40,278 bases of DNA from an uncultured Lachnospiraceae bacterium (GTDB lineage: Bacteria; Bacillota; Clostridia; Lachnospirales; Lachnospiraceae), in contig CALWDR010000143.1 of NCBI GenBank assembly GCA_944376745.1, positions 1 through 40,278 of the forward strand. Reading direction: 5' to 3'. How positions within the stretch are numbered: position 1 is the first letter of the stretch; the number at the start of each line of letters is the position of its first letter. Positions 1,171 through 34,359 of the stretch are shown here, piece after piece. Below the pieces are notes generated by a model. It was not told where the DNA came from, searched no databases, and saw nothing but the letters and a program-made list of their open reading frames with translations. The position numbers and the translations under genes were made by a program.

Positions 1171-1202
1171 GCCTGTAAACCGAAAAATAAGGATTTACAG
1201 GC
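1171..1202. terminator. Inverted repeat, probable terminator of the beta-CASP gene
   Basis: GCCTGTAAA (1171-1179) and TTTACAGGC (1194-1202) form a perfect 9 bp stem with a 14-base loop. It lies 55 bases past the stop of the minus-strand gene at 1257-4031. The minus-strand sequence after the stem is only moderately T-rich, so efficiency is uncertain; it could also mark the right edge of the decayed gene on the plus strand. Confidence 0.5.
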
Positions 1203-1256
1203 TCTAACTCTTTTGAATGACACAGCCCTTTGTCTGATCGAAGGAAGCACCCAAAG

Positions 1257-4031
1257 CTACCCCTGCGCAAATTCGCACCCGCATCCCGTCTCCCTGCGGA
1301 AGACCTCCGCAACTTCCGTGAGGCTTTCTTCGGAGGTGCCGGGAGCCGTTTTGATGACAAGGGTCTGCCGCTGCGGCAGATAGGAGGGGTTCTTTGCAGG
1401 TGTGATACCGTACCGGGCGCAGAGGGCCCCGGCGATCCGAAAGAGCGCGTTCTGGTCTACCCGTGGAGCGATACGTATCCGCCAGCCAGTCTCGTTGGCC
1501 AGCGCCTGCAGCTGCTGCCGGTGAGAGAGGCCAAAGGCCGGGGAGAGGAAGGCAACCTCCAGGTAGCGACCTTTGGGATCTTGCTTCAGGCCTTTTTTGG
1601 GCGGTCCGTAGGGCAGGTCTGAAAATTCCTGTTCGATACAGGCAAAGGCAAGGTTCTGTTCCAAAGGCTCTGTAGACGGGTCGGCGGGGCGAAACTCCAT
1701 GGAGCTTTCCGTTTGCCGGGACGTTGTGGAGATGCTGCCTGCCTGACCGTTGCCCGTGCCCGCCTGGCTGCTGTCCGCGCAATAGGAAGCGCTGCCAGCC
1801 TGGCCGTTCGCTGTGGCTGTTCCCGCAAGGAGGATTCCGTTGACACGAAGCTGCCAGCCTGTCCTTTTGGCAAATTCTCCGGCAGCATTTTGCGTCTCCT
1901 CTGTTTGTGCAGTTTCCTGCTCTGAATACGGAATGGACGACTGCGTATCCGCCTGCCCTCCGGATAGGGACGTATCCGCCTGCCCTCCGGATAGGGGCGT
2001 ATCCCCCTGCCCTCCGGATAGGGGCGTCTCCCTCTGCTCTTCGGGGCTGCGTGCGTATTCCTGGCCGGCCAGGGTAATGCTGTAGACCTTTTGCTCCTGA
2101 AAATAGGAGATCTTTCGGATCTGGCCCGGAAAAAGGGCATACAGGAGCGCACTGGCCGCGCTGTGATTCATGGCGGTATTGGCCCGGATCTGCCAGCCGG
2201 TGTCCGCCGCGAAGCGCTCCGCTTTTTTCTGGAAATCCGCACGGTCAAGGCTGTCCGGAAAGTCAAACTGAAGGGTGATCTCCTTCGATTCCATGTGATA
2301 ACCGATCCTGCGGAAGGAGTATCCGGCGAAAGCGGCCTGTACCAGAGGTTCCAGCTCCTGCATGGTCAGCTCCTTCGGTGCCAGCGCTTTCTTTACCTCC
2401 TCCTCGGGGACCGCCTCAAACAGGAAGAGCTGTCGGGCGTTCTGGCAAAAGTAAGGGCTTTTCAAAAGCTCCTCCTGCATGGCGGAAAGAATGTCCTCCT
2501 CTGTCACCGGCTTCCCGTACCAGATGTGGGCGAGCTGGGCAACGCCAAAGGTCCTTCCTGGAAAATGCTCCCGCCAGTAATTCCACAGCAGTATTTCGTC
2601 CTTCTGAGAGAAAGGCGTCTGCCGCTGCAGGGTAAAGGCGGGGACGAAGGAGATCTGTTTGCGCGGGGAGCGGAGGGTGAGCTCGTATTCCTGGCCGCAT
2701 TCCGGCAGGTACACCCGGCGGCGGTAGTCCTCGGCGGATACCTCCTGCCCCAGCTCCCGGATGGAATCGGAGCTGCCGTGGACCAGGAAAATATGCCGGG
2801 CCGACAGGCGGGAGAGCAGGGAGAGGATCTCGGATTTGTCCCCGTGGGCGGACAGCCCCACCTGCTCGATCCGGCAGTTGACCGGAATGGAAGCGCCGTC
2901 TAAGGCAAGCTTCCGTTCCGGAGAGCCGGCGGGTTCTTCCAGAAGCTTTAACAGCTGCCGGCCGGGAGATTCTTCATCCTGATAGCCGGTGATGATGATG
3001 CAGGCGTCCTCCCGGGGAGCCAGCTGCCTGGCGTACTGGCAGCTGGGGCCGCCGGTGAGCATGCCGGAGCTTGACACCAGGATCAGGGGGCCTTTGGCTT
3101 TCAGCAGCTCCTCCCGGTTCTGATTGGGTGCCACCGGCTGGATCTCTTTTGTATAGAAGGGCTCGTTTCCCTTCAAAATTCGCTTGCCCAGGGCATTTTT
3201 CAGAAAGGCGGGATTGCGGGTATACATGGTGTTGATATTGCGTACCATGCCGTCCGCGTACACCGGCACGGCGGGGATTTCCTGATTCTGGATGGCGGCT
3301 CTGAGGATCAGAAGCACCTCCTGGGCCCGGCCCAGGGCAAAGGCGGGAATCAGGATCTTCTGTTCTTTTTCGACGCATTCTTTGACCAGTTCTATAAGGC
3401 GGTGCTCCTCCACCTGGCGGTTGGAGTGGAGCCGGTTCCCGTAGGTGGATTCTACGATGGCGATATCGGGGCGCAGCTTCGGGATGTGGATCCCCTCAAT
3501 GGTGCGCTGGGAGAAGGCTGCGAAATCGCCGGAATAAAACAGCGTTCCCTCCTGGGTGACAAGATAGACGCACGCCGCCCCGGCAATGTGGCCTGCCGGA
3601 TAGAAGGTCAGCGTAAAGCCTTCCGCCGGAGTCACGGGAGCCTGGTACCGCACCGGTGTGACGCGGCCTAACATATCCAGTACATCCTGCTCCGTGTAAT
3701 GGGGGATATCATCCTCGCGGTTATTCATGATCTTCAGACTGTCGTAGAGCAGCACACGGGTCAGGTCGGCAGTCATGGGCGTCATGTAGATCCTGGCCAG
3801 GGGATAGGCTTTGCTGAGAATGGGCAGGGTTCCGATATGGTCCATATGGGCGTGGCTTATGAAGATCATGTCAAGTCCGCCCTGCTGCTGGATGGTATGA
3901 AAATCCGGAAGGGGATCCTTCGTTCCGGACTGGCGGATGCCGCAGTCCAGCAGAATGCCTTTGTCCGCTGCCCGCAGATAGATACAGCTTCCGCCGATTT
4001 CCATGGCGCCGCCCAGAAAATGTATGTTCAT
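1257..4031 (-). CDS. Beta-CASP metallo-beta-lactamase (CPSF/RNase J-like) with long repeat-bearing C-terminal extension
   Basis: A predicted zinc-dependent nucleic-acid hydrolase of the MBL/beta-CASP superfamily, probably a cytoplasmic RNase. The N-terminal ~460 residues carry the expected motifs in order: HAHMDHIG, GHIAGA, YSGDF, the beta-CASP blocks VESTYGN and AFALGRAQEV, SSSGMLTGG, and GLSAHGDKSEI. Start ATG has GAGGT 7-8 bases upstream. At 924 residues it is far longer than the usual ~530. The extension contains recurring modules ending in DTGWQIR, RTGWQLRVN, ETGWRIRI and a degenerate ETGCGCEF, each preceded by a beta-strand-like segment and a helix. The second module is split by a 9-residue tandem repeat (D/E-T-P-L-S-G-G-Q-x). 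The modules might bind RNA; that is inference. It is divergent from the NifX-like gene. Confidence 0.85.
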   Translation of the reverse strand: MNIHFLGGAMEIGGSCIYLRAADKGILLDCGIRQSGTKDPLPDFHTIQQQGGLDMIFISHAHMDHIGTLPILSKAYPLARIYMTPMTADLTRVLLYDSLKIMNNREDDIPHYTEQDVLDMLGRVTPVRYQAPVTPAEGFTLTFYPAGHIAGAACVYLVTQEGTLFYSGDFAAFSQRTIEGIHIPKLRPDIAIVESTYGNRLHSNRQVEEHRLIELVKECVEKEQKILIPAFALGRAQEVLLILRAAIQNQEIPAVPVYADGMVRNINTMYTRNPAFLKNALGKRILKGNEPFYTKEIQPVAPNQNREELLKAKGPLILVSSSGMLTGGPSCQYARQLAPREDACIIITGYQDEESPGRQLLKLLEEPAGSPERKLALDGASIPVNCRIEQVGLSAHGDKSEILSLLSRLSARHIFLVHGSSDSIRELGQEVSAEDYRRRVYLPECGQEYELTLRSPRKQISFVPAFTLQRQTPFSQKDEILLWNYWREHFPGRTFGVAQLAHIWYGKPVTEEDILSAMQEELLKSPYFCQNARQLFLFEAVPEEEVKKALAPKELTMQELEPLVQAAFAGYSFRRIGYHMESKEITLQFDFPDSLDRADFQKKAERFAADTGWQIRANTAMNHSAASALLYALFPGQIRKISYFQEQKVYSITLAGQEYARSPEEQRETPLSGGQGDTPLSGGQADTSLSGGQADTQSSIPYSEQETAQTEETQNAAGEFAKRTGWQLRVNGILLAGTATANGQAGSASYCADSSQAGTGNGQAGSISTTSRQTESSMEFRPADPSTEPLEQNLAFACIEQEFSDLPYGPPKKGLKQDPKGRYLEVAFLSPAFGLSHRQQLQALANETGWRIRIAPRVDQNALFRIAGALCARYGITPAKNPSYLPQRQTLVIKTAPGTSEESLTEVAEVFRRETGCGCEFAQG
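1944..2035. repeat. 27-bp tandem repeat, three copies plus a partial
   Basis: Units at 1944-1970, 1971-1997 and 1998-2024 differ by only one to two bases; a degraded fourth begins at 2025. The core is CTGCCCTCCGGATAGGG. Read on the minus strand it encodes the 9-residue TPLSGGQ(A/G)D linker repeat of the beta-CASP protein, keeping frame. Confidence 0.9.
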
Positions 4032-5643: not shown

Positions 5644-7071
5644 ATGCTTCCCGAGAAATTTACGGAAAGAATGAGAGAAATGCTGGGGGAGGAATACCCC
5701 CGGTTTTTGGAGTGCTATGAGCGGGATGTGGCCCATGCGCTGCGGGTGAATTCTTTAAAATGCGCGGCAGAGACCTTAAGGGCCCAGGCGCCGTTTACTT
5801 TAACCCCGGTGCCCTGGAATGAGAACGGGTTTTATTATGACGGCGGGGACAGGCCGGGCCGCCACCCTTATCACGCGGCGGGCGTTTACTACATCCAGGA
5901 GGCCAGCGCTATGGTCCCGGTGATGTATCTTGGGCCAAAGCCTGGGGAGCGGGTGCTGGACCTGTGCGCGGCTCCGGGAGGCAAGAGCACTCAGATCGGG
6001 GCGGCCATGGAGCAGCGGGGCATCCTCATTTTAAATGAGATCCATCCGGCCAGGGCGGGCATCCTTACGGAAAATGTGGAGCGGATGGGGATCCGAAACG
6101 CCATTGTCACCAACGAGACGCCCGGGCGGCTGGCGGAGGCGTTTCCAGAGTATTTTGACCGGATCCTGGTGGACGCCCCCTGCTCCGGGGAGGGGATGTT
6201 TCGGAAAAATGAGGAGGCGGTTTCCCAGTGGAGCCCGGAAAATGTGGAGCTCTGCGCCGCCCGCCAGGACGAGATCCTTATCAGCGCCGCCCGGATGCTG
6301 GCGCCGGGCGGAAGGCTTGTGTATTCCACCTGCACCTTTGCGCCCCAGGAAAACGAGGGGACCATTGCCCGCTTTTTGGCGAAACATCCGGAATTTCAGA
6401 TAGAACCCGTGGAAAAATTTCCGGGGATGGCTCCCGGAGTGCCGGAGTGGGCCTGGAAGTTCGGCTCGGGGCAGGAGAAAACGGAGGGGACCGCGCAAAG
6501 GGACAGCATCCGGCTGATAGCTGCCTCATCCGCCGGCCTGGACGGAACGATCCGCCTGTGGCCTCATAAGATCCGGGGGGAAGGCCATTTTGTGGCGGTT
6601 CTAAGAAAAACGGGCACGCTGCCGGAGAAGCGGAGCGTCCCCGTGCAGAGAGGCCTGAAGGAAAAGGACGCCAGGGAATATCTGGATTTTGCCAGGGAGA
6701 ATCTCGGCCTAAGCCTTGCGGGAATTTTGATAAAGCGCAAGGACCAGCTCTATCTGGCGCCTTCGGAGACGCCTTCCCTGGAAGGGCTTAAGGTGCTGCG
6801 GCCCGGCCTGCACCTGGGCACCGTCAAAAAAGGGCGCTTTGAGCCGGCCCATGCGCTGGCGCTGACGCTTCAGCCAGAGGAGGTGCGGCACAGCCTGCAT
6901 CTGCCGGCGGATTCCAGGGAAATCTGCGCGTATTTAAGGGGAGAGACGCTGCCGGTGGAAGGGGAGAAGGGCTGGTATCTCATGACCGTGGACGGTTACA
7001 GCGTTGGCTGGGGAAAGCAAAGCGGCGGCGTGATGAAGAACCATTATCCAAAGGGACTGCGAAAGCCTTAA
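5644..7071 (+). CDS. rsmF: 16S rRNA (cytosine-C5) methyltransferase RsmF-type
   Basis: A SAM-dependent RNA m5C methyltransferase of the NOL1/NOP2/Sun family acting on 16S rRNA. Motifs: RVNSLK near the N-terminus, SAM-binding LDLCAAPGGKS (~residue 105), DAPCSGEGMF with one active cysteine, and STCTFAPQENE with the catalytic TC cysteine. The C-terminal ~170 residues match the extra domain that separates RsmF (YebU-like) from RsmB. Length 475 is normal for Firmicute members. ATG is preceded by AAGGAGAG. It stands 87 bases after the sigma-like gene with no clear terminator between. Confidence 0.9.
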   Translation: MLPEKFTERMREMLGEEYPRFLECYERDVAHALRVNSLKCAAETLRAQAPFTLTPVPWNENGFYYDGGDRPGRHPYHAAGVYYIQEASAMVPVMYLGPKPGERVLDLCAAPGGKSTQIGAAMEQRGILILNEIHPARAGILTENVERMGIRNAIVTNETPGRLAEAFPEYFDRILVDAPCSGEGMFRKNEEAVSQWSPENVELCAARQDEILISAARMLAPGGRLVYSTCTFAPQENEGTIARFLAKHPEFQIEPVEKFPGMAPGVPEWAWKFGSGQEKTEGTAQRDSIRLIAASSAGLDGTIRLWPHKIRGEGHFVAVLRKTGTLPEKRSVPVQRGLKEKDAREYLDFARENLGLSLAGILIKRKDQLYLAPSETPSLEGLKVLRPGLHLGTVKKGRFEPAHALALTLQPEEVRHSLHLPADSREICAYLRGETLPVEGEKGWYLMTVDGYSVGWGKQSGGVMKNHYPKGLRKP

Positions 7072-7201
7072 GGCGGCAGGGAGGCGGGTGATAGGATTCT
7101 CACCCCAAACAGGCATAGAAACCCGCCCGCCCGGAATAGAATGAAATGGCAGAAAACGATCAGAAGGGGAATCACTCCCATCTGATACAGGGGGAGCGCA
7201 T

Positions 7202-8188
7202 ATGACCATTTCAGATTTCTTTTCCCTGCTGGGCGGCCTGGGATTTTTTATGTATGGCATGCGCATGCTGCGGGAGCATTTGGAGGCGGCAGCGGGAAAC
7301 GCCATGGAAACGCTGCTTAGAAGGCTTACGAAAACGCCCCTGCGGGGATTTCTGGCCGGGATCGGGATCACGGCGGCGGTGCAGTCCTCCACCGCCGTGA
7401 TGGTGCTGCTGGTGGGCTTTGTGGATTCCGGGTTTTTGACCCTTCAAAGGACCGTGTGGGTGATTCTGGGGGCCAACATCGGAACCACGGTCACCAGCCA
7501 GCTTACGGCTCTGGATCTGGGGATGCTGGCCCCGCTTCTGGCGTTTGCGGGAATTGTTATGATGCTGTTTTCCAAAAATGAGAAAGTGTCCTGCGGGCAT
7601 ACCTTTATGCCACCCGGCAGGAGTAAGGAAATTTTCCGGCTGGGCGGCATATTATCGGGCTTTGGCATGATGTTTCTGGGACTGTCCATGGCGGAGGCGG
7701 CCATGGCGCCTTTGGGGGAATCCGGAGTGTTTCAGTCCCTTCTGATAAAATGTCAAAATCCTTTGGCGGGAATCCTGGCGGGAACGGTTTTCACCGCATT
7801 GCTCCAGTCCTCCACGGCCTCGGTGGGAATCCTGCAGATGCTGGCCAGAAACGGCCTCATCGGGATCGGGCAGAGCATCTATATCGTATTCGGTCAGAAT
7901 ATGGGGACCTGCTTTACGGCCCTGCTGGCCTCGGCGGGCACCTCCATAAATGCCAGGCGGACGGCGGCCCTCCACCTTTTTATCAACGTGCTGGGGACCC
8001 TGGTCTTTCTGGCGCTGTGCCAGGTGCTTCCCCTGGAACTGTGGGTGGGGCGGCTGGCGCCCTCTGACCCGGCCCGGCAGGTGGCCCATGTACATACCCT
8101 GTTTAACGTGGGCTCCTCCCTGGCCTTCCTGCCGCTGGGCGGGCTGCTGGTCAAATGGATAAAACGGCTGATACCGGAGAAGGCGTGA
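7202..8188 (+). CDS. Na+/phosphate cotransporter family protein (NptA-type, PF02690), short form
   Basis: An integral membrane symporter. Two inverted halves each carry the hallmark QSST motif: AAVQSSTAVMVLL (~residue 60) and ALLQSSTASVGIL (~residue 203). LGGLGFFMYGMRMLREHLE at the start and GANIGTTVTSQLTAL are typical. At 328 residues it lacks the ~200-residue PhoU-like cytoplasmic domain often fused to this family, so regulation through PhoU would need another protein. ATG follows GGGGGAG at good spacing. It sits 130 bases after rsmF; the gap holds a long GGCGGGT/ACCCGCC inverted repeat that is not terminator-like. Confidence 0.85.
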   Translation: MTISDFFSLLGGLGFFMYGMRMLREHLEAAAGNAMETLLRRLTKTPLRGFLAGIGITAAVQSSTAVMVLLVGFVDSGFLTLQRTVWVILGANIGTTVTSQLTALDLGMLAPLLAFAGIVMMLFSKNEKVSCGHTFMPPGRSKEIFRLGGILSGFGMMFLGLSMAEAAMAPLGESGVFQSLLIKCQNPLAGILAGTVFTALLQSSTASVGILQMLARNGLIGIGQSIYIVFGQNMGTCFTALLASAGTSINARRTAALHLFINVLGTLVFLALCQVLPLELWVGRLAPSDPARQVAHVHTLFNVGSSLAFLPLGGLLVKWIKRLIPEKA

Positions 8189-8204
8189 ACCGGGATTCTG
8201 TTTG

Positions 8205-8303
8205 GCATTGCCGTTCAGTCGCAAAAAAGAAATGACGCATTGCCGGCCAGGCCGCAAAAAAAGAAATGATGTATTGCCGTTCAGGCCGCAAAAAAAGTCG
8301 GGG
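8205..8303. repeat. Intergenic tandem repeat, three ~33-bp copies
   Basis: Copies start at 8205, 8237 and 8271, each reading ATTGCCG(T/G)(T/C)CAG followed by (T/C)CGCAAAAAA and then GAAATGA or GTCGGGG. They lie just after the Na/Pi symporter stop and before uppP. No stem followed by a T-run is seen, so this is a minisatellite more than a terminator. Confidence 0.8.
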
Positions 8304-8477
8304 CTATTTTAAGAAAAATTTACTTGAAAAAAGCGGCGAAGTGTTGGAAAATAAGAGGGTATGAGAAATGTGCGGACGACCTGAACTTCCATTTGCAGGA
8401 AAATGCTGGTACACGGTCCGGTTATCTGGCGAACGGTGTACTGGATAAAGGGTCCCACAGCGAGAAAAGGAGTATCC

Positions 8478-9305
8478 ATGGAAATTTTAGAATTGTTGAA
8501 AGCGCTGATCCTGGGAATCGTGGAGGGGATCACCGAGTGGCTCCCGGTCAGCAGCACCGGGCACATGATCCTGGTGGATGAATTTTTAAGTCTGGACGTA
8601 TCTGCGGATTTTCGGGAAATGTTTCTGGTGGTGATACAGCTTGGCGCCATCCTGGCCGTGGTGGTGCTGTATTTCTGGAAAATCTTCCCCTTCACCCGGG
8701 AGCAGGGCAGGGTGAGGGTGAAGATGGAGACCATCTCCATGTGGCTGAAGATCCTGGTGTCCTGCATCCCGGCGGCCATTGTGGGACTGCTCTTTGACGA
8801 TGAGATCGACGCGTTGTTTTACAATTGGCAGACGGTTTCTATCATGCTGATCCTGTTCGGTATCTTTTTTATTTTGATCGAGCGGTACAACCGGGGGAAA
8901 CAGCCGGCGATGGAGTCCCTGGATGCCCTGACCTACCGGGCGGCTGTCATCATCGGCCTGTTTCAGCTGGTGGCGGCGGTATTTCCCGGGACCTCCCGGT
9001 CCGGGGCCACGATCCTGGGGGCCCTTTTGATCGGCGTATCCCGCACCGTGGCGGCGGAGTACACCTTCTTCCTGGCCATCCCTGTGATGTTCGGGGCCAG
9101 TGCCTTAAAGCTTGTGAAGTTCGGCTTCGATTTTACAGGGCAGGAGCTTGCCATCCTGGCGGTGGGCCTGGTGTCCGCCTTCGTGGTGTCCGTTCTGGCC
9201 ATCAAATTTTTGATGGGATACATCAAAAAGCACGATTTTACCGTGTTCGGCTGGTACCGGATCGTGCTGGGTGCTCTGGTGATCCTGTATTTTAATTATA
9301 TGTAA
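8478..9305 (+). CDS. uppP: Undecaprenyl-diphosphatase UppP (BacA)
   Basis: An integral membrane phosphatase that converts undecaprenyl diphosphate to the monophosphate, recycling the lipid carrier for peptidoglycan and other envelope polymers; overproduction in other bacteria gives bacitracin resistance. Signature motif 1 EGITEWLPVSSTGHM (~residue 17) and motif 2 FPGTSRSGATI (~residue 170) are both intact, with the catalytic Glu/Ser/Arg residues present. Length 275 is standard and about eight membrane segments can be read. ATG at 8478 has AAAGGAG 6-7 bases upstream and starts with the family-typical MEILELLKALILGIVEG, so the longer upstream reading is rejected. Confidence 0.95.
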   Translation: MEILELLKALILGIVEGITEWLPVSSTGHMILVDEFLSLDVSADFREMFLVVIQLGAILAVVVLYFWKIFPFTREQGRVRVKMETISMWLKILVSCIPAAIVGLLFDDEIDALFYNWQTVSIMLILFGIFFILIERYNRGKQPAMESLDALTYRAAVIIGLFQLVAAVFPGTSRSGATILGALLIGVSRTVAAEYTFFLAIPVMFGASALKLVKFGFDFTGQELAILAVGLVSAFVVSVLAIKFLMGYIKKHDFTVFGWYRIVLGALVILYFNYM

Positions 9306-22783: not shown

Positions 22784-23152
22784 ATGATACTGACACTGGA
22801 TTTTGCCAGCGATATCCCCATTTATCAGCAGATCCGCAACGCCGTCGTCAGGGCCATCGCCGACGGTCAGCTTCAGCCGGGAGAGCGGCTGCCCACGGTC
22901 CGAGCCCTGGCTCAGGAGGCGGGGATCAATTCGATGACGGTGAACAAGGCCTATCAGCTTTTAAAACAGGAGGGCTATATTACCACCGACGGACGGAACG
23001 GGGCGGCCGTGGGAAGCGGGCCCGGCAGGGCGGCAGCGGCCAGCGCCAGGCGGCAGAAGCTTGAAGAGGAGCTTAAGCTGATCGTGGCGGAGGCCAAAGT
23101 AAACGGGATTTCGCTTGGAGAGCTGGAGCAGATGATCGGAAAGCTCTACTAG
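22784..23152 (+). CDS. GntR-family transcriptional regulator, YtrA subfamily
   Basis: A 122-residue DNA-binding repressor. A GntR winged helix occupies residues ~8-75: IYQQIRNAVVRAIADGQLQPGERLPTVRAL is the classic helix 1 to wing region, with INSMTVNKAYQLLKQEGYI as recognition helix. The short tail (~40 residues, helical) is typical of YtrA regulators, which usually control adjacent membrane or ABC transporter genes and themselves. ATG at 22784 follows GAGGGT; an upstream ATG at 22764 lacks a site. It is likely to control the membrane protein gene 90 bases downstream. Confidence 0.9.
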   Translation: MILTLDFASDIPIYQQIRNAVVRAIADGQLQPGERLPTVRALAQEAGINSMTVNKAYQLLKQEGYITTDGRNGAAVGSGPGRAAAASARRQKLEEELKLIVAEAKVNGISLGELEQMIGKLY

Positions 23153-23242
23153 TAAACCCTTCGCTAAATAACCGGACCAATCGCGCAGAATGCTTTTTCG
23201 AGTGTGCGGTTAAAAAACGTTTATGACAACAGGAGGCAGCGT

Positions 23243-24655
23243 ATGGGAATAAAATTGATCATGGCATGTTGTTTTCTTCCTTGTATCTTGATCATGTTTG
23301 GCGTGTTGTACATGGAGGGCCGGCAGAAGGGCAATGTCCTTCTGGGGGTTACCCTGTGGCCGGGAGCCGATAAGGAGGAGGGCGTCCGGAAGATCCAGAA
23401 GCGTTTTCGGAAGGAAATGTACCTGGCGCTTCTGAGTTCTGTCCTTGTGTTTTTATGCACTTGCATACCTAATAGGGAATCCATCGTCCTAAGCACCCAG
23501 ATCCTCTGGCTGATGGCGGCGATAGCGGTGTTTTTTGTGCCCATGGCAAACGGGAACCGGCGCATGAAAATCCTCAAGCGGGAGCGGCGGATCGAGATAC
23601 TGGAAGGGATACCGGAGGCTGTAACGGGGGCGGAAGGCGGCCAGAAGGTTTATGTGGATCTGAAGGCAGCTGCCGCCCCGAAGGGAAAGCCCTTCTTCCG
23701 GCTGTCCCTGGCGGGAGCCCTCCTGGGGCTGGTTCCGGTCCTGGGAGAACTGTTCCTGGCCCAAGGCTCCTTTTACGGGTGGTGGACGGAGCTTTTGCTG
23801 GTCATCATGTTCCTGGTGGGGCTTCTCTGCCTGTGGTTTCAGCGCTATTTCTGGCGGATGCGGACGGACGTCATCAGCTACCGCAGTCAGGTGAACATTC
23901 AGCTTTCCCGGGTGCGGCAGTACCAGTGGAGCCGGTTCTGGTGTATGTTCCTCTGGGGCAACTCGGTCTTTAATATCCTTCTGTGGATCAGTATGCACTG
24001 GACGAAGGGAGGAATCTACCTGATTCTTGGCGGTACATTTGCTTATATGCTTTTGGCCATGGCGGGCATGTTTGTGGCGGAGCGCAACGTGCGGAAGGTG
24101 TATGGAGCCTTTCAGAAGGAAGAAGGACTTTCGGTGGAGGAGGACGACCACTGGATATGCGGGATGTTTTACTACAACAAGAACGACAACCGCTTTATGG
24201 TGAATCAGCGGGTGGGGATCGGGACCACCGTAAATCTGGCCAAGACCTCGGGCAAGGTGTTCACTGCGGGCATTTCCCTGCTCACAGCGGCGGTGCTCGT
24301 CTGGGCTGTGGGCCTGATCCTTCTGGAGGACTTTGTCCCGGTCTCTCTGAAGGTGACGGAGGACGCGGTGATCTCCAGCCAGTATAAGGAGGAGTACCGG
24401 ATACCTCTGGAGGAGATCGATACGGTGGAACTGGTGGAGGAACTGCCCGCCATGAGCAAGCGTGTGGGTACCGCCCTGGATACCATCAAGAAAGGCTCCT
24501 TCCTGACGGAGGACTATGTGCCCTGCAAGGTATGCGTTCGCATAAAGAAACTGCCGGTTGTGAAGATCACCGCGGACGGGATGGTGTACTATCTCAACGA
24601 CGAGGAGCCGGAGGTCACGGAGGAGGTGTATGAGGAGCTTTTGAATTTGATGTAA
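23243..24655 (+). CDS. DUF1648/DUF5808-type polytopic membrane protein
   Basis: A 470-residue membrane protein. Spans can be read near residues 5-22, 60-80, 90-105, 165-180 (LAGALLGLVPVLGELFL), 185-205, 245-265, 270-290 and 350-375. A soluble loop GADKEEGVRKIQKRFRKE follows the first span. HWICGMFYYNKNDNRFMVNQ with GIGTTVNL matches the DUF5808 pattern, and the C-terminal ~90 residues (ISSQYKEEYRIPLEEIDTVEL) look like a bacterial PH-like domain. Function is unknown. ATG at 23243 is chosen for AGGAGG. A YtrA-type regulator upstream is the usual partner, suggesting cell-envelope stress response. Confidence 0.7.
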   Translation: MGIKLIMACCFLPCILIMFGVLYMEGRQKGNVLLGVTLWPGADKEEGVRKIQKRFRKEMYLALLSSVLVFLCTCIPNRESIVLSTQILWLMAAIAVFFVPMANGNRRMKILKRERRIEILEGIPEAVTGAEGGQKVYVDLKAAAAPKGKPFFRLSLAGALLGLVPVLGELFLAQGSFYGWWTELLLVIMFLVGLLCLWFQRYFWRMRTDVISYRSQVNIQLSRVRQYQWSRFWCMFLWGNSVFNILLWISMHWTKGGIYLILGGTFAYMLLAMAGMFVAERNVRKVYGAFQKEEGLSVEEDDHWICGMFYYNKNDNRFMVNQRVGIGTTVNLAKTSGKVFTAGISLLTAAVLVWAVGLILLEDFVPVSLKVTEDAVISSQYKEEYRIPLEEIDTVELVEELPAMSKRVGTALDTIKKGSFLTEDYVPCKVCVRIKKLPVVKITADGMVYYLNDEEPEVTEEVYEELLNLM

Positions 24656-24694
24656 AAAAATTACCGTATCAAAGAAAAAAAGATACAGGAGAGG

Positions 24695-24722
24695 TTGTAA
24701 AATCATAAAATCCGTGTATAAT
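24695..24722 (+). promoter_or_regulatory. Promoter of the ATPase/TOPRIM cassette
   Basis: TTGTAA (24695-24700), a 16-base spacer and TATAAT (24717-24722) end 27 bases before the ATPase ATG, which has GAGGAGGG upstream. The surrounding base composition turns AT-rich here. Confidence 0.7.
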
Positions 24723-24749
24723 ATCTCATATACGAGGAGGGCATGGGAT

Positions 24750-25847
24750 ATGTTGCAGGAGTTTAAGGTTAGGAATTATAAGAATTTTCGGGATGAGCTT
24801 GATTTTTCTTTAAAGACAATAAAGAATTATGAATTTAATAAAAACATTGTTGATAACGGCATTATAAGAGACAGTCTTGTAATCGGAGAAAACGCCAGCG
24901 GAAAAACAAATTTAGGCTATGCCATCCTGGATATTATCTGGCACTTGACAGACAAGGGCAGAAGAGATATCAGATGGTCGCCTAATTATTTCAACAGCGA
25001 TACGAATGTGTATTTTGAGTACACATTTCGGTTTGATGAGTCCATGATCGTATACAGCTACGAGAAAGAGCAGGCGGACAAGGTTGTCAGAGAGCGGTTA
25101 TATATTGATGGAAAAAAAGTGATTGAAAATGATCGCTCAGAAATGTGGGTCAGCCTGAAGGGGGCTGAAAATCTGAACCTGAAAAATTACAAACGCGATA
25201 TTTCGCTGGTAAAATATGTATATGCCAACACCATACTAGATGTAAACGATCAGAATTGTAAAGTGTTTCAGGAATTTATGCAGTTTGTAAACGGCATGTT
25301 ATGGTTTAGCAGTACGGAAGGCAATAATTATATAGGATTTTCCAATGAGAGGGGAAATCTTTTTGAGGCAATCGCAAGCCGTGAGAATGGAGTTGAAAAA
25401 TTACAGGCGTTTTTGCGGGAAGCGGGTATTGATTATCAACTGATTGTACGAGATAAAGGCGAGGGGAAAAATATTTATTGTAAGATGGGGCAAAAAGAAG
25501 TACCTTTGTCTTCTGTGGTATCCAGCGGAACAAGGTCGTTGATTTTTTTCTTTTTCTGGTATCTACAGGCAGAACAGGTTTCTTTTCTTTATATTGATGA
25601 GTTTGATGCTTTCTATCACACGGATTTATCTGCTGCAGTTGTAAAAAAGGTAATAGAACTGCAAAATGTACAGGCGATTGTGACATCACATAATACGGAC
25701 TTGCTTTCCGCAGGGCTGCTGCGTCCGGACTGTATTTTTAAATTGGAGGAGAATAAAATCAAGTCTTTCTCTGAACTTACAGAGAAAGCGCTGAGAGAGG
25801 CTCATAATTTACAGAAAATGTATAAAGCAGGGGCGTTTAATGATTAA
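24750..25847 (+). CDS. AAA15/AAA_21-type ATPase (RloA/AriA-like), first gene of an AT-rich cassette
   Basis: An ABC/SMC-like ATPase of the COG1106 type, 365 residues. The N-terminal FKVRNYKNFRDELDFSL is the typical OLD-like opening; Walker A is IGENASGKTNL (~residue 50); a signature-like VVSSGTRSLIFFF lies near 265; Walker B is FLYIDEFDAFYH, followed by VTSHNTDLL. Such ATPases work as sensors in two-gene defence or toxin systems with a nuclease partner. It overlaps the following TOPRIM-like gene by 8 bases (ATG inside the end of this gene). Composition is far more AT-rich than its neighbours (14 of 60 G+C in bases 24781-24840 against 38 of 60 in 24241-24300), a sign of horizontal transfer. 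The substrate or trigger is unknown. Confidence 0.75.
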   Translation: MLQEFKVRNYKNFRDELDFSLKTIKNYEFNKNIVDNGIIRDSLVIGENASGKTNLGYAILDIIWHLTDKGRRDIRWSPNYFNSDTNVYFEYTFRFDESMIVYSYEKEQADKVVRERLYIDGKKVIENDRSEMWVSLKGAENLNLKNYKRDISLVKYVYANTILDVNDQNCKVFQEFMQFVNGMLWFSSTEGNNYIGFSNERGNLFEAIASRENGVEKLQAFLREAGIDYQLIVRDKGEGKNIYCKMGQKEVPLSSVVSSGTRSLIFFFFWYLQAEQVSFLYIDEFDAFYHTDLSAAVVKKVIELQNVQAIVTSHNTDLLSAGLLRPDCIFKLEENKIKSFSELTEKALREAHNLQKMYKAGAFND

Positions 25848-26615
25848 GGATAAAGTAAAAAAGATTGCACTGATTTATGAGGGTATAAAAACGGAGAAAA
25901 ATTTATTTGAAAGTATAAAAAAGCATTTTTTTATGGTTCAGGCTGAGCTGGTGATCGTGACATTGCCTGCGGATGGAAATATTTACATGCTATGGTCAAG
26001 ATTAAAAGCAGATGATTTTGAAACGGATTTGATTCATGTTCTGAAGGAAATGAACCGTGATATTTCAGAAAAGCTGAAAGATGTGATGATAATGATTTTT
26101 CAGAGGTGTATCTTTTCTTCGATTATGATAGCCAAAATGATAATATTCCGAAAGAATTGCGGGAAAGAGATGTGCTGGAGGAAATGCTGCAGACATTTAA
26201 TAATGAAACGGAACTGGGAAAGTTATACATCTCTTACCCAATGGTGGAATCCATCAAAGAGATTTCTGTTAGCAGGCAGGATTATGTTACGTTTTATTTA
26301 CCCTTGTCTGAGTGTGGAAAATATAAGGAAATTGTTGGCGGTAAGTCGGATTACAGTGATTATAGAAAGATTACAAAAAAGATGTGGTATGCGGCTTGCA
26401 ATGCCAGCCGGAAGAGAGCCTCTGTGCTTGTGTCCTATAAAGAACAGTGTAATTATCAGGAGTTTCTGAATCGGCTTACGCAGGAAAACATTTATAAATC
26501 GCAAAAGAAGATTTTTATAAAAGAGAATCAGGCGATAGGTATTTTGAATTCAGTGCCGTTATTTTTACTTGAATATTATGACGAAACGTTTTGGAATCTG
26601 GTTTGCGAAGTATAA
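25840..26615 (+). pseudogene. TOPRIM-like (RloB/AriB-like) nuclease candidate, frameshifted
   Basis: The second cassette gene, ~257 residues once the frame is restored. The N-terminus IALIYEGIKTEKNLFESI carries the TOPRIM glutamate (compare CEGEKTEPNYF of RloB-like proteins), and VYLFFDYDSQND supplies the DxD acidic pair. The rest is helical, with SYPMVESIKEI and a Lys-rich C-terminus. Frame 1 (25840 to ~26082) must switch back one base (or skip two) at GATGTGATGATAATGAT to reach the frame that runs to 26615; the unshifted reading degenerates after LKDVMIM and stops at 26469. So the gene is inactivated, mis-sequenced or uses a programmed shift. Family placement between RloB and DUF4435/AriB is not settled. 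Confidence 0.6.
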
Positions 26616-26688
26616 GTCTTTCAGGAAGAGCTTGAGAATATGACATTTCCTATAATAAGCGCCTCCCCTGCCTTCATATAATATAAGG

Positions 26689-27435
26689 ATGACTCCCGGC
26701 GAGGATCTGCCCTTGAAGCCTTTGTATCGAAAAATCCTGTTTCTGGATATGGTTCTTTTGTGCCTGGCATTGCTTTTGGGCCTTAAGGAGCATGCGGCGG
26801 GGCACCCGGACTGCCTGCTGGCATCTCTGATCTTTTGGGACAGCGGCGAGGAGTCGGAGGAAGACCCCTACGGGGAGTTGATAAAAAAAGTTGCCCTCAC
26901 CTTTGACGACGGTCCCTATCCGCCGGGCACGGAACGGCTTTTGGACGGACTTTCGGAGCGGAAGGTGAAGGTGACTTTTTTTGTGTTGGGCATCCAGGCG
27001 GAGAAATACCCCGCGCTTCTGGAGCGGATGGACCGGGAGGGCCATCTGATCGGGAATCACACCTACAGCCATATCCGGCTTGGCAGGGACAACCGGGAGG
27101 CCTACAAGGCGGATCTGAAGAAGGCCGGGGAGCTGATTGCCTCCGTCACGGGGGAGGAGGTCCTGTTCGTGCGCCCGCCCTTTGGAAAATGGGATAAGGA
27201 GCTGGAGCAGGAGCTTGACATGTTTGAGGTGCTCTGGAGCCTGGACCCCAAGGACTGGAGTAAAGACAGCGCCTCTGAGATCGCCCGCGCGGTGCTTGAC
27301 AAGGTGAAGCCCGGCGATATTATTTTGCTCCATGACCAGTTTGCCTCCAGCGTGAACGCGGCCTTCCTCATTATAGACGAGCTGACCAGGCAGGGCTATG
27401 AGTTTGTGACGGTGGATGAGCTTTTGTTGGATTGA
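26689..27435 (+). CDS. Polysaccharide deacetylase (CE4/NodB family), membrane-anchored
   Basis: A metal-dependent de-N-acetylase of cell-wall or exopolysaccharide. NodB motifs in order: ALTFDDGPYPPGT (motif 1, catalytic base and metal Asp), HTYSHIRLG (motif 2, metal His), FVRPPFGKW (motif 3), WSLDPKDW (motif 4) and IILLHD (motif 5). All five are intact. A single span near residues 14-32 (ILFLDMVLLCLALLLGL) acts as signal anchor, placing the domain outside. Length 248 is compact. The ATG at 26689 has AAGG touching it, so a TTG at 26713 with GAGG 8 bases upstream may be the real start. GC content returns to the genome norm. Confidence 0.88.
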   Translation: MTPGEDLPLKPLYRKILFLDMVLLCLALLLGLKEHAAGHPDCLLASLIFWDSGEESEEDPYGELIKKVALTFDDGPYPPGTERLLDGLSERKVKVTFFVLGIQAEKYPALLERMDREGHLIGNHTYSHIRLGRDNREAYKADLKKAGELIASVTGEEVLFVRPPFGKWDKELEQELDMFEVLWSLDPKDWSKDSASEIARAVLDKVKPGDIILLHDQFASSVNAAFLIIDELTRQGYEFVTVDELLLD

Positions 27436-31758: not shown

Positions 31759-33550
31759 ATGAAAAAAAAGAATACCGATTGGGGTTGAATTCTATAAGCA
31801 GATGATAGAAAAAGACTATTATTATATAGATAAAACACTTTTGATAAAAGATATTCTGGAAAAGGGAGGACAGGTGAATCTGTTCACAAGACCCCGTCGC
31901 TTTGGCAAAACGCTGGCGCTGACGATGCTGCGCACTTTTTTTGAAGCCGAGATAGACAGAAATGGCGCGTTAAAAGATAACCGTCATTATTTTGACGGGA
32001 TGAAGATTATGGAGGCAGGAGAAGAATATACCAGACATCTTGGACAGTATCCGGTAATTTTTCTCTCCTTAAAGTCTGCGAAACAGCCGAATTTTGGGAT
32101 GGCCTATGAGATGCTGAAGCGTCAGATAAAAGATGAATTTGACCGGCATGCATATGTGCTTAAGACGGATGCTTTGGACGAGGTCGCAAAAGAAAGATAT
32201 CGGAAGATATGTGATTTAAGTGCAGGCCCGGAGGAATATGCAGCGGCGCTTGCCTTTTTGTCAAAATGTCTGGAACAATATCATGACAAGAAAACAATCA
32301 TTTTGCTGGACGAATATGACGTGCCCCTGGAAAATTCTTATTTTCAGGGATTTTACGACGAGATGATACAATTTATCCGTTCCCTGTTTGAATCCGCATT
32401 AAAGACCAATGAAAGTCTGGAGTTTGCTATAATTACAGGATGCCTTCGTATCAGCAAGGAGAGTATTTTTACGGGGTTGAACAATCTGGAGATTATTTCG
32501 ATTTTGAACAGGCAGTTTGCGGAAAGCTTTGGATTTACACAGACGGAAGCAGAACAGATACTTATGGATTACGGACTGGAACAGAGAAAACAGGAGATGA
32601 AGGAATGGTACGACGGATATCTCTTTGGAGAGGTGGAGGTCTACAATCCGTGGAGTGTTATCAATTATGTGAAAACAGCGGTATTTGACGAGCATGCGTT
32701 TCCGAAACCATACTGGTCCAATACTTCTTCCAACAGCATTGTAAAGGAACTGGTACAGCATGCGGACAGTAAAGTAAAAAAAGAAATTGAACATCTGATA
32801 GCGGACGGTACGATTGAAAAACAGGTACACGACGCCGAAAGCAACTTAGTGAATTCAAGCGGAGCGCAGAATGAACTTAGTGCGAGGCGGTTCTTTGAGA
32901 TTAATGAAACCAAGCCGCAGGCGCAGGTTGAATTTAGCGAAAAGAACATCCTTGATTACGCAGGTATGGATATCTGGAATTTTCTGTTCTTCACTGGATA
33001 TTTGAAAGCTGTGAGCCAGCGGTTTGAGGGAGACACAACGTATCTGACCATGAAGATACCTAATGCGGAGATACGTTATATTTATCGTAATACCATCCAG
33101 GAATGGTTTGAACAGAAAATCAAGGTCTGGGATTTCGCACCCATGTATAAAGCGATTTTTCAGGGGGATGCAGAAGGCTTTGAGCGGATGGTGAAGCAGC
33201 AGCTGTCGGGCAGCATCAGCTATTTTGACAGCGAGGAACAGTTTTACCATGGATTTCTTTTAGGACTTCTTCGCCCATTGCAGGATTACGAGGTAGTGTC
33301 TAATCGGGAAAGCGGAGACGGCAGACCTGATATTGAATTAAAACCTTATGATGAATTAAAACCGGCGGTGATTCTGGAAATCAAACATGTGAAACAGTTT
33401 CCCCAGATGGAGAACGGTTGTCGGGAAGCTTTGAAGCAGATAGAAGAAAAGAGGTATGCGGAGGGGCTTTTGGAAGAGGGCTATCATACGGTTATGAAGT
33501 ATGGAATCTGTTTTTGCAGAAAAAGCTGCAGGATTGTTGTTGACGTATAA
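31759..33550 (+). CDS. AAA-ATPase-like / PD-(D/E)XK nuclease protein, near full length, start frameshifted in A8
   Basis: The nearly intact family member. Walker A-like FTRPRRFGKTLA (the family form), FDGMKIM, YPVIFLSLKSAKQ, Walker B TIILLDEYDVPL, ITGCLRISKESIFTGLNN, WYDGYLFGEVEVYNPWSV, then the C-terminal nuclease with GRPDIEL and VILEIKHVKQ (D...ExK). AAGGAGGT (31739-31746) precedes two candidate starts: ATG 31754, which reads Met-Glu-stop, and ATG 31759, which runs into a run of eight A. With seven A the reading is the family-typical MKKRIPIGVEFYKQMIEKD and 596 residues; with eight it stops after ten codons. Translation could instead begin at ATG 31802 (582 residues), which has no ribosome site. 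AT-rich relative to neighbours. Function unknown; nuclease-type defence or selfish roles are guesses. Confidence 0.75.
32835..32953 (+). repeat. 119-bp segment identical to bases 1-119
   Basis: Bases 32835-32953 equal bases 1-119 without a mismatch; the first difference is 32954 (g) against 120 (a), after which the genes diverge strongly. Upstream comparison is impossible because the window starts there. The segment encodes the junction between the ATPase and nuclease halves (NSSGAQNELSARRFFEIN and on). Confidence 0.95.
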
Positions 33551-33610
33551 GAGTCCATTTCTAAATATTTTATGAATATTGCAAATTTCCCCCAATTTCT
33601 TTGCCGGATG

Positions 33611-33619
33611 TGTTATACT
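33611..33619 (+). promoter_or_regulatory. Extended -10 promoter of the alarmone synthetase gene
   Basis: TGT followed by TATACT (33614-33619) is an extended -10 element; no good -35 is seen 16-18 bases upstream. Between it and the TTG start is a small ACGGG...CCCGT hairpin (about 33632-33647) in the 5' leader. Confidence 0.45.
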
Positions 33620-33672
33620 AATAAAAAAATGACGGGGAATTTCCCGTTTCGCAGAAAGTAGAGAAGAAAAAA

Positions 33673-34359
33673 TTGGACGCAACGATTAAGTTTAACGAGG
33701 ACATAGACAGTTGGAAGACTGTGATGTTTCTATATAATTCTGCCCTGAAGGAAGTAAATACCAAGCTGGAGATCTTAAACGACGAATTTCAGCATGTACA
33801 TCAATACAACCCCATCGAATACTTCAAATCCAGGATCAAGACTCCTGAGAGTATCGTAAAAAAGCTGAAGCGCTACGGCTATGAGACCTCCATCGACAAT
33901 ATGGTGAGTTACGTCAATGACATTGCCGGAATCCGCATTGTCTGCTCCTTTACCTCGGACATTTACCGTATCGCGGAGATGATCGGCAGGCAGAACGATC
34001 TGACGGTGGTCTCCGTCAAGGATTACATCAAGAATCCCAAGGAAAACGGCTACAAGAGCTATCACATGCTGGTGACGGTGCCCATTTTCCTGACGGACCA
34101 GGTGGTGGATACCAAAGTGGAGATTCAGATCCGCACCATCGCCATGGATTTCTGGGCCAGCCTGGAGCATAAGATCTATTACAAATTCGAGGGCAACGCG
34201 CCGGAGTACATCAGCCGTGAATTAAAGGACTGCGCGGACATGGTTTCCATGCTGGACGCCCGCATGCTGCGGCTCAATGAGGCGATCATCCAGGCGAAGA
34301 AGGAGAACCGGGACGCGGAGGAGAAGCGGAGAAGCATGCTGCGGCAGGCCGAGAGTTGA
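33673..34359 (+). CDS. Small alarmone synthetase (RelQ/YjbM-like GTP pyrophosphokinase)
   Basis: A single-domain (p)ppGpp synthetase of 228 residues with the RelA/SpoT fold (PF04607) and no hydrolase, TGS or ACT domain. IEYFKSRIKTPESIVKKLKRYG is the ATP-binding Arg/Lys stretch; VNDIAGIRIVCSF, NGYKSYHMLVTVP (G-loop Tyr) and VEIQIRTIAMDFWASLEHK with the catalytic Glu-x-Gln are all present. The C-terminal helix supports tetramer formation in RelQ. No ATG fits: the frame starts at TTG 33673 after a weak GTAGAGAAG site, so translation is probably low, as suits an alarmone enzyme. The radical SAM gene follows after 118 bases. Confidence 0.88.
   Translation: MDATIKFNEDIDSWKTVMFLYNSALKEVNTKLEILNDEFQHVHQYNPIEYFKSRIKTPESIVKKLKRYGYETSIDNMVSYVNDIAGIRIVCSFTSDIYRIAEMIGRQNDLTVVSVKDYIKNPKENGYKSYHMLVTVPIFLTDQVVDTKVEIQIRTIAMDFWASLEHKIYYKFEGNAPEYISRELKDCADMVSMLDARMLRLNEAIIQAKKENRDAEEKRRSMLRQAES

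What the first reader, a model, noticed from the sequence alone, without database searches (positions are those of the whole stretch)
24695..26615. AT-rich two-gene ATPase/TOPRIM cassette with its own promoter: candidate defence system
Seen: an OLD/AAA15-like ATPase (IGENASGKT, YIDEFDAF, TSHNTDLL) overlapping by 8 bases a protein with a TOPRIM-like pattern (YEG.KTEKN...FFDYDS), preceded by TTGTAA-16-TATAAT, in DNA much more AT-rich than both sides. Known: pairs of AAA15-type ATPase with RloB-like or DUF4435 TOPRIM proteins (RloA/RloB, PARIS AriA/AriB) act in phage defence. The ATPase is small (365 residues) and the partner does not clearly match either family, so it may be a distinct subtype.
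Basis: partly seen in the sequence, partly recalled or inferred. Interest (0 to 1): 0.7.

Follow-up and report, generated by a model that had tools for sequence, protein, structure and literature searches.

The report
Phage-defence cassette with broken toxin
A bacterium carries a small extra two-gene cassette, an ATPase and a predicted nuclease, of a family that probably protects against phages by shutting down infected cells; here the nuclease gene is broken, and where relatives have lost just one of the two genes it was nearly always the nuclease, which suggests that the ATPase keeps a poisonous partner in check.

Summary
In detail: a 365-residue ABC-type ATPase gene (24750-25847) overlaps by 8 bases a partner gene whose frame is broken near 26080-26105, in AT-rich DNA with a promoter-like site. 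The block (about 24644-26672) is absent from one sibling species. The partner is a remote RloB/AbiLii relative with invariant acidic residues in 101 homologues; its predicted fold does not settle TOPRIM. It is not PARIS by PARIS's rule (no DUF4435). Intact pairs sit on 4-kb E. coli plasmids and a Vibrio filamentous phage. New here: of 33 classifiable loci found by searching with each gene, 22 have both intact, 9 an intact ATPase without intact partner, 1 the reverse, 1 neither; on a tree of 81 loci the partner's status changes 19 times (15 forced by well-supported branches). This one-sided decay fits an ATPase restraining a toxic nuclease; published tests on related pairs agree only in part. 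Trigger, target and protection are untested.

The parts
24644..26672 (.). AT-rich block, absent from sibling genome G005 (29 bases at the same site)
   Evidence: blastn of flanks; composition
24695..24722 (+). sigma-70-like promoter TTGTAA-16-TATAAT, inside the block
   Evidence: 10 of 12 matches; consensus match only
24734..24741 (+). likely ribosome-binding site before the ATPase start
   Evidence: read from sequence
24750..25847 (+). ATPase, 365 aa, PDC-M12A / AAA_21
24885..24908 (+). Walker A GENASGKT
   Evidence: G46, N48, G51, K52 invariant in 88 homologues
25521..25538 (+). ABC signature SSGTRS
   Evidence: S258, G260, T261 invariant
25584..25601 (+). Walker B FLYIDE
   Evidence: D283 invariant, E284 nearly so
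25779..25844 (+). conserved C-terminal tail with K-x-Y-x-x-G-x-F, proposed partner contact (inferred)
   Evidence: many invariant positions; low confidence in the lone model; similar tails on RloB-paired ATPases
25840..26615 (+). partner gene (PDC-M12B, RloB/TOPRIM-like), reading frame broken between about 26080 and 26105
   Evidence: N piece PDC-M12B E 8.5e-16, C piece E 6.4e-45; intact 258-aa copy P0002, 99% identical to the C piece
25879..25881 (+). predicted catalytic Glu of the YEG motif
   Evidence: E14 invariant in 101 homologues
26121..26129 (+). predicted DxD metal site (FFDYD)
   Evidence: D95 and D97 invariant
26247..26249 (+). Glu of SYPMxE, aligned with the Glu of RloB SNxxFE
   Evidence: E137 invariant; hhalign

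Best explanation
The window carries a two-gene cassette of the PDC-M12 family, apparently inserted by horizontal transfer, that pairs a small ABC-type ATPase with a predicted TOPRIM-type nuclease and likely works as an abortive-infection, toxin-antitoxin-like phage defence, although the nuclease gene is frame-broken in this copy. Shown by sequence: the pairing, the 8-base overlap of the two genes, the ATPase motifs, the invariant acidic residues of the partner, the empty site in one sibling species, and the one-sided loss of the partner in relatives. Inferred: the ATPase forms an ATP-dependent assembly that senses infection and holds the nuclease inactive, probably through its conserved C-terminal tail; an infection cue frees or switches on the nuclease, which would cleave essential nucleic acid (tRNA by analogy with AriB is my first guess, DNA not excluded) and stop the cell before phage is released. 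In this strain the pair is probably non-functional for defence unless the break is an assembly error.
For: Both halves match PDC-M12; the ATPase also matches AbiLi (3.7e-42) and AriA (3.4e-21) profiles. The partner profile aligns with 12 RloB proteins over three motifs in order (hhalign E 1.1e-4, probability 57); 49 of 101 homologues hit RloB at E <= 0.1, best 3.1e-7. Of 14 ATPases beside RloB genes, 10 end in K-x-Y-x-x-G-x-[YF] as PDC-M12A does, 3 differ at one position, 1 departs. The nearest partner start codon overlaps the ATPase end by 8 bases in 36 of 59 intact loci and by 4, 11 or 14 in 19 more. Classified loci: 22 both intact, 9 ATPase only, 1 partner only, 1 neither (sign test 0.021). 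Tree of 81 loci: 27 lost, 19 changes, 15 forced by starred branches. Intact pairs on plasmids and phages. Published: a related AAA:TOPRIM_OLD pair of C. algidicarnis passed a toxicity-neutralisation test (PMC10440598, passages and section 11 part 1 of 2); F. nucleatum AbiLii is toxic in E. coli (PMC3985639, passages); AriB, held by an ABC ATPase, cleaves tRNA (PMC12409363, abstract and introduction).
Confidence: 0.68

Rival explanations
1. The pair works like OLD/Gabija: ATPase and nuclease act together on phage DNA, and the ATPase activates or loads the nuclease; it does not restrain it.
Against: If the ATPase only helped the nuclease, there is no reason for relatives to lose the nuclease and keep the longer ATPase gene. 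A related pair shows neutralisation by the ATPase.
Confidence: 0.2
2. The cassette is chiefly an addiction module that stabilises small plasmids and phages; protection against phages is secondary.
For: It sits on 4.0-4.4 kb E. coli plasmids with few other genes and on a filamentous phage; the mobile copies that I read are intact, whereas copies in genome assemblies often lose the partner, as expected once addiction brings no gain.
Against: Full pairs are also found in many genome assemblies; homology is to AbiL and PARIS, which act on phages (as stated for them in the papers). The plasmid and phage sample is small and partly near-identical.
Confidence: 0.2
3. At this locus it is simply a decaying relic with no present role.
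For: The partner frame is broken in the window and relatives often carry broken partners.
Against: ATPase reading frame and motifs are intact; an intact near-identical partner exists on another contig (P0002), so an assembly error or a strain-specific break is possible.
Confidence: 0.35

Closest known systems
PDC-M12 (PADLOC-DB candidate system)
   Same: Both proteins match its models over nearly full length (P0002 for the partner).
   Different: The window's partner is frame-broken; I saw no other difference. A library search for the name found no paper.
AbiL (AbiLi/AbiLii, Lactococcus)
   Same: ATPase matches the AbiLi profile (E 3.7e-42); partner weakly matches AbiLii (2.5e-4); two-gene ATPase plus TOPRIM-like effector.
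   Different: Partner similarity is remote; phage aborting not tested here.
RloA/RloB
   Same: Partner shares three acidic motifs in order; 10 of 14 RloB-neighbouring ATPases share the C-terminal motif.
   Different: P0002 is under the RloB cut-off (20.8 against 31.5 bits); ATPase 365 aa against open frames of 394-470 aa in those 14 loci; no restriction-modification gene among the neighbours scanned in the window.
PARIS (AriA/AriB)
   Same: ABC-type ATPase plus separate TOPRIM-like effector; AriA profile E 3.4e-21. Depositors of a Vibrio phage labelled the ATPase Paris_II__AAA_21.
   Different: No DUF4435 match in the scans made, which PARIS detection requires (PMC9122126, passages).
AAA(D29):TOPRIM_OLD(D44) toxin-antitoxin pair of Clostridium algidicarnis (NetFlax)
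   Same: AAA ATPase paired with an RloB-homologous TOPRIM toxin, validated for neutralisation (PMC10440598).
   Different: I did not have its sequence, so whether it is itself PDC-M12 is open.
OLD / Gabija GajA
   Different: Two separate genes here; GajA is one chain.

Membership tests
PDC-M12 | ATPase matching PDC-M12A over its length | tested here: met
   E 1.4e-128, residues 1-364
PDC-M12 | adjacent partner matching PDC-M12B | tested here: met
   two pieces in the window; intact copy P0002 E 1.2e-67
PDC-M12 | intact partner reading frame in this copy | tested here: not met
   frame broken at about 26080-26105
PARIS | AAA_15 or AAA_21 ATPase | tested here: met
   AAA_21 67.6 bits against cut-off 27
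PARIS | DUF4435 (PF14491) partner | tested here: not met
   no match at E <= 1 for the window pieces; not among the matches of P0002, nor among the 25 families shown of 29 for 101 homologues at E <= 0.1
RloB (PF13707) | score over Pfam cut-off | tested here: not met
   P0002 20.8 bits against 31.5; 7 of the 120 listed homologues (of 197) carry a precomputed PF13707
RloB (PF13707) | EG-TE, DxD and SNxxFE-type motifs in order | tested here: met
   hhalign of A1 against 12 RloB-type proteins, E 1.1e-4, probability 57
TOPRIM nuclease | TOPRIM fold | tested here: inconclusive
TOPRIM nuclease | nuclease activity | not testable with these tools
   needs protein
AbiL | AbiLi and AbiLii profile matches | tested here: inconclusive
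   AbiLi 3.7e-42; AbiLii 2.5e-4 for P0002, 2e-6 for P0031, none for P0097 at E <= 1
AbiL | phage abortive infection | not testable with these tools
   needs phage plating
OLD / Gabija | ATPase and TOPRIM in one chain | tested here: not met
   two overlapping genes
toxin-antitoxin system | partner toxic alone, neutralised by the ATPase | not testable with these tools
   indirect only: one-sided loss of the partner

The most novel reading that the evidence does not exclude
PDC-M12 is a phage- and plasmid-borne suicide cassette whose toxin arm is purged again and again after it lands in a chromosome, while the left-over ATPase is kept because it protects the cell from incoming copies of the toxin: a defence system that turns into a vaccine against itself.
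Probability: 0.13. Interest if true: 0.65.

Novelty: new member of a known kind. Interest (0 to 1): 0.4.

Why it matters
It gives a listed but, as far as I could find, undescribed defence candidate a lineage (AbiL, RloAB, PARIS), a likely division of labour, and natural intact copies on 4-kb E. coli plasmids and a filamentous phage, so that its toxicity, neutralisation and phage range can be tested directly in laboratory E. coli. The recurrent loss of one gene is a genomic hint of which partner is the poison in two-gene ATPase/TOPRIM systems, and could be applied to other uncharacterised pairs.

Tried and rejected
PARIS membership: rejected, no DUF4435. Partner as another known domain: DUF5085 (unknown function) matches 84 of 101 homologues at E <= 0.1 and is listed as precomputed for P0002, but in my scan P0002 scores 25.9 bits under the cut-off of 30, over 58 residues. 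PtsI-like rows in the PDB sequence searches have E 0.29-0.63 and 0.11-0.37. Swapped effectors in ATPase-only loci: of eight loci read in three frames, L121, L018 and L052 still show the first residues of the partner after the ATPase, L127 its first third, and L028 a possible scrap; L123, L128 and L145 show no clear remnant, so a swap and a full deletion cannot be told apart there. Ancient orphan ATPases: partner remnants still show dN below dS (ratio about 0.04, 0.16 and 0.30 in the three close pairs L032, L029, L057; in the others dS is over 1 or saturated), so the losses look recent, which speaks against the novel case. Programmed frameshift in the window: not studied beyond noting that intact homologues read in one frame. 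Defence-island test: 148 of 192 neighbour proteins, from 37 of 48 loci, scanned without a control; PADLOC showed 25 of 50 matching families, each with 1-3 proteins, and Pfam three terminase ATPase domains, so no enrichment is claimed. Rfam (gathering) and tRNA scans of the window found nothing. Two of the three stretches fetched (L178, L179) were not used.

Full report
What is there. The ATPase gene (24750-25847, 365 aa) and the partner start at 25840 overlap by 8 bases. The partner's two halves are in different frames; the N piece (25840 to about 26091) and the C piece (26106-26615) match the same family at consecutive positions. An intact relative, P0002 (258 aa), is 99% identical to the C piece, so an intact copy exists elsewhere. 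Whether the break is real or an assembly error cannot be told here; the genome G000 is a draft of 340 contigs.

It looks like an insert. In sibling genome G005 the left neighbour (23204-24655) and the right neighbour (polysaccharide deacetylase, 26689-27435) are contiguous, with 29 bases between the aligned ends where the window has 24644-26672. This is one empty site: in the other four genomes of the genus the two flanks were not both found side by side. No terminal repeats stand out. The promoter-like TTGTAA-16-TATAAT is inside the block. The neighbours scanned are ordinary: GntR regulator, DUF5808 protein, deacetylase, MgsA-type ATPase.

What family. PADLOC-DB: ATPase PDC-M12A E 1.4e-128, then AbiLi 3.7e-42 and AriA 3.4e-21; partner copy P0002 PDC-M12B E 1.2e-67, AbiLii 2.5e-4. 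Pfam: AAA_21 67.6 bits; no DUF4435. NCBIfam gives no real match. A search of the paper library for PDC-M12 found none; that PDC stands for phage defence candidate is recalled.

Mobility. tblastn finds the ATPase in 3 of 50,697 phage records (E <= 1e-20), all Vibrio phages, of which the one that I opened is filamentous (Tubulavirales), and in 14 of 72,556 plasmid records (E <= 1e-15), 9 of them Escherichia plasmids of 4.0-4.4 kb. The E. coli pair has near matches in 9 of 5426 complete genomes, all on plasmids, 7 covering at least 80% in one place. In that phage and in the E. coli plasmid opened, the two genes overlap by 8 bases. The mobile copies that I read have an intact partner: L211-L215 and six of eight IMG/VR loci; the other two are weak ATPase matches without a partner. 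Several are near-identical, L208 has its ATPase cut by the contig end, and L207 has the contig length and range of L030 of my genome set. Fusobacterium L216 (filed as plasmid, 2.1 Mb) is also intact.

One-sided decay. I searched each gene separately over 397 genomes of G000's family (probably Lachnospiraceae, judged from titles of related contigs) and 391 of its class; the ATPase limit was E 1e-25, the partner limit 0.001, and at most 5-6 candidates per genome were scored. That gave 37 loci after I dropped one weak partner-only hit (G344). By script, 33 were classifiable: 22 both intact; 9 ATPase intact with partner broken (5) or absent (4); 1 ATPase broken with partner intact; 1 ATPase broken with partner absent; 4 touch contig ends. 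'Intact' for the partner allows an open frame of 235 aa or more where the model match is short; L144 was let in below the ATPase score limit; and L124 (G193), which marks with one stop inside, was counted intact. The window is one of the nine. Sign test of 9 against 1: 0.021 two-sided; against the gene-length share 0.0022 one-sided. Four of the nine (L126, L127, L128, L145) form one clade, so the independent count may be 6 against 1. In the ATPase-recruited set of 71 loci (biased towards intact ATPases, and overlapping the first set), 58 have an intact ATPase and room downstream: 37 partner intact, 17 broken, 4 absent; L008 and L059 are near-copies, and L060 is counted intact though the model covers only its first half. 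Two loci have a broken ATPase with an intact partner (L067 shows the same pieces as G015 of the first set), three have lost both. On a tree of 81 loci of both sets, without duplicates, contig-end cases and broken ATPases, 27 have lost the partner, with 19 label changes, 15 forced by starred branches; shuffled labels give about 23. Tree counts cannot tell loss from gain, but partner remnants at the expected place do in many loci. Remnants keep dN below dS, so losses look recent.

Coupling. In 59 intact loci of both sets (some duplicates) the in-frame start codon nearest the ATPase stop overlaps it by 8 bases in 36, 11 in 16, 4 in 2, 14 in 1; 2 lie after it and 2 had none found. True starts were not verified.

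Mechanism. PMC10440598 (passages and section 11 part 1 of 2) reports neutralisation of an RloB-homologous TOPRIM_OLD toxin by an AAA ATPase in C. algidicarnis and speculates on abortive infection. PMC3985639 (passages) reports that F. nucleatum AbiLii is toxic in E. coli, that its AbiLi did not neutralise it, and that Lactococcus AbiLii was not toxic. PMC12409363 (abstract, introduction) describes AriB held by the AriA hexamer, freed by phage proteins and cleaving tRNA. PMC11630473 (passages) reports accessory defence loci in Vibrio filamentous prophages. The decay pattern agrees with a toxic partner under ATPase control. Trigger, target and real protection are not tested.

Verdict. A real cassette of a listed candidate defence family, with its toxin arm broken here. 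The one-sided decay and the small-plasmid copies are the useful additions.

Noticed in passing
window 31802-34359: A second AT-rich stretch: a predicted AAA-ATPase with PD-(D/E)XK nuclease domain (PF09820, PF08011) followed by a RelA/SpoT-domain protein (PF04607).
   Followed up: partly
window about 23143-23221: An intergenic stretch of about 70 bases with 84-92% matches on five other contigs of the same genome (C44, C47, C76, C85, C137), probably a dispersed repeat.
   Followed up: no
G000 contigs C78, C123, C281, C135 (L184, L195, L201, L202): The same genome holds four further RloB-family genes above Pfam cut-off, three of them seen beside an ATPase gene.
   Followed up: partly
L212 (PQ189355.1) 6862-8728: A Vibrio filamentous phage carries an intact PDC-M12 pair; the partner is annotated as hypothetical.
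   Followed up: yes
L211 (NZ_CP123265.1) 1172-3071: A 4.4-kb E. coli plasmid whose largest annotated genes are an intact PDC-M12 pair.
   Followed up: yes
L105, L107-L112: Partners with longer open frames (335-362 aa) and a C-terminal part not covered by the model, possibly a variant effector.
   Followed up: no
L005, L025, L029, L032, L035, L038, L042, L057: Many partner losses are internal deletions that leave the ATPase end intact; mapped pieces overlap by a few bases in several, hinting at short-repeat deletion (for six of them, for L005 and L042).
   Followed up: partly
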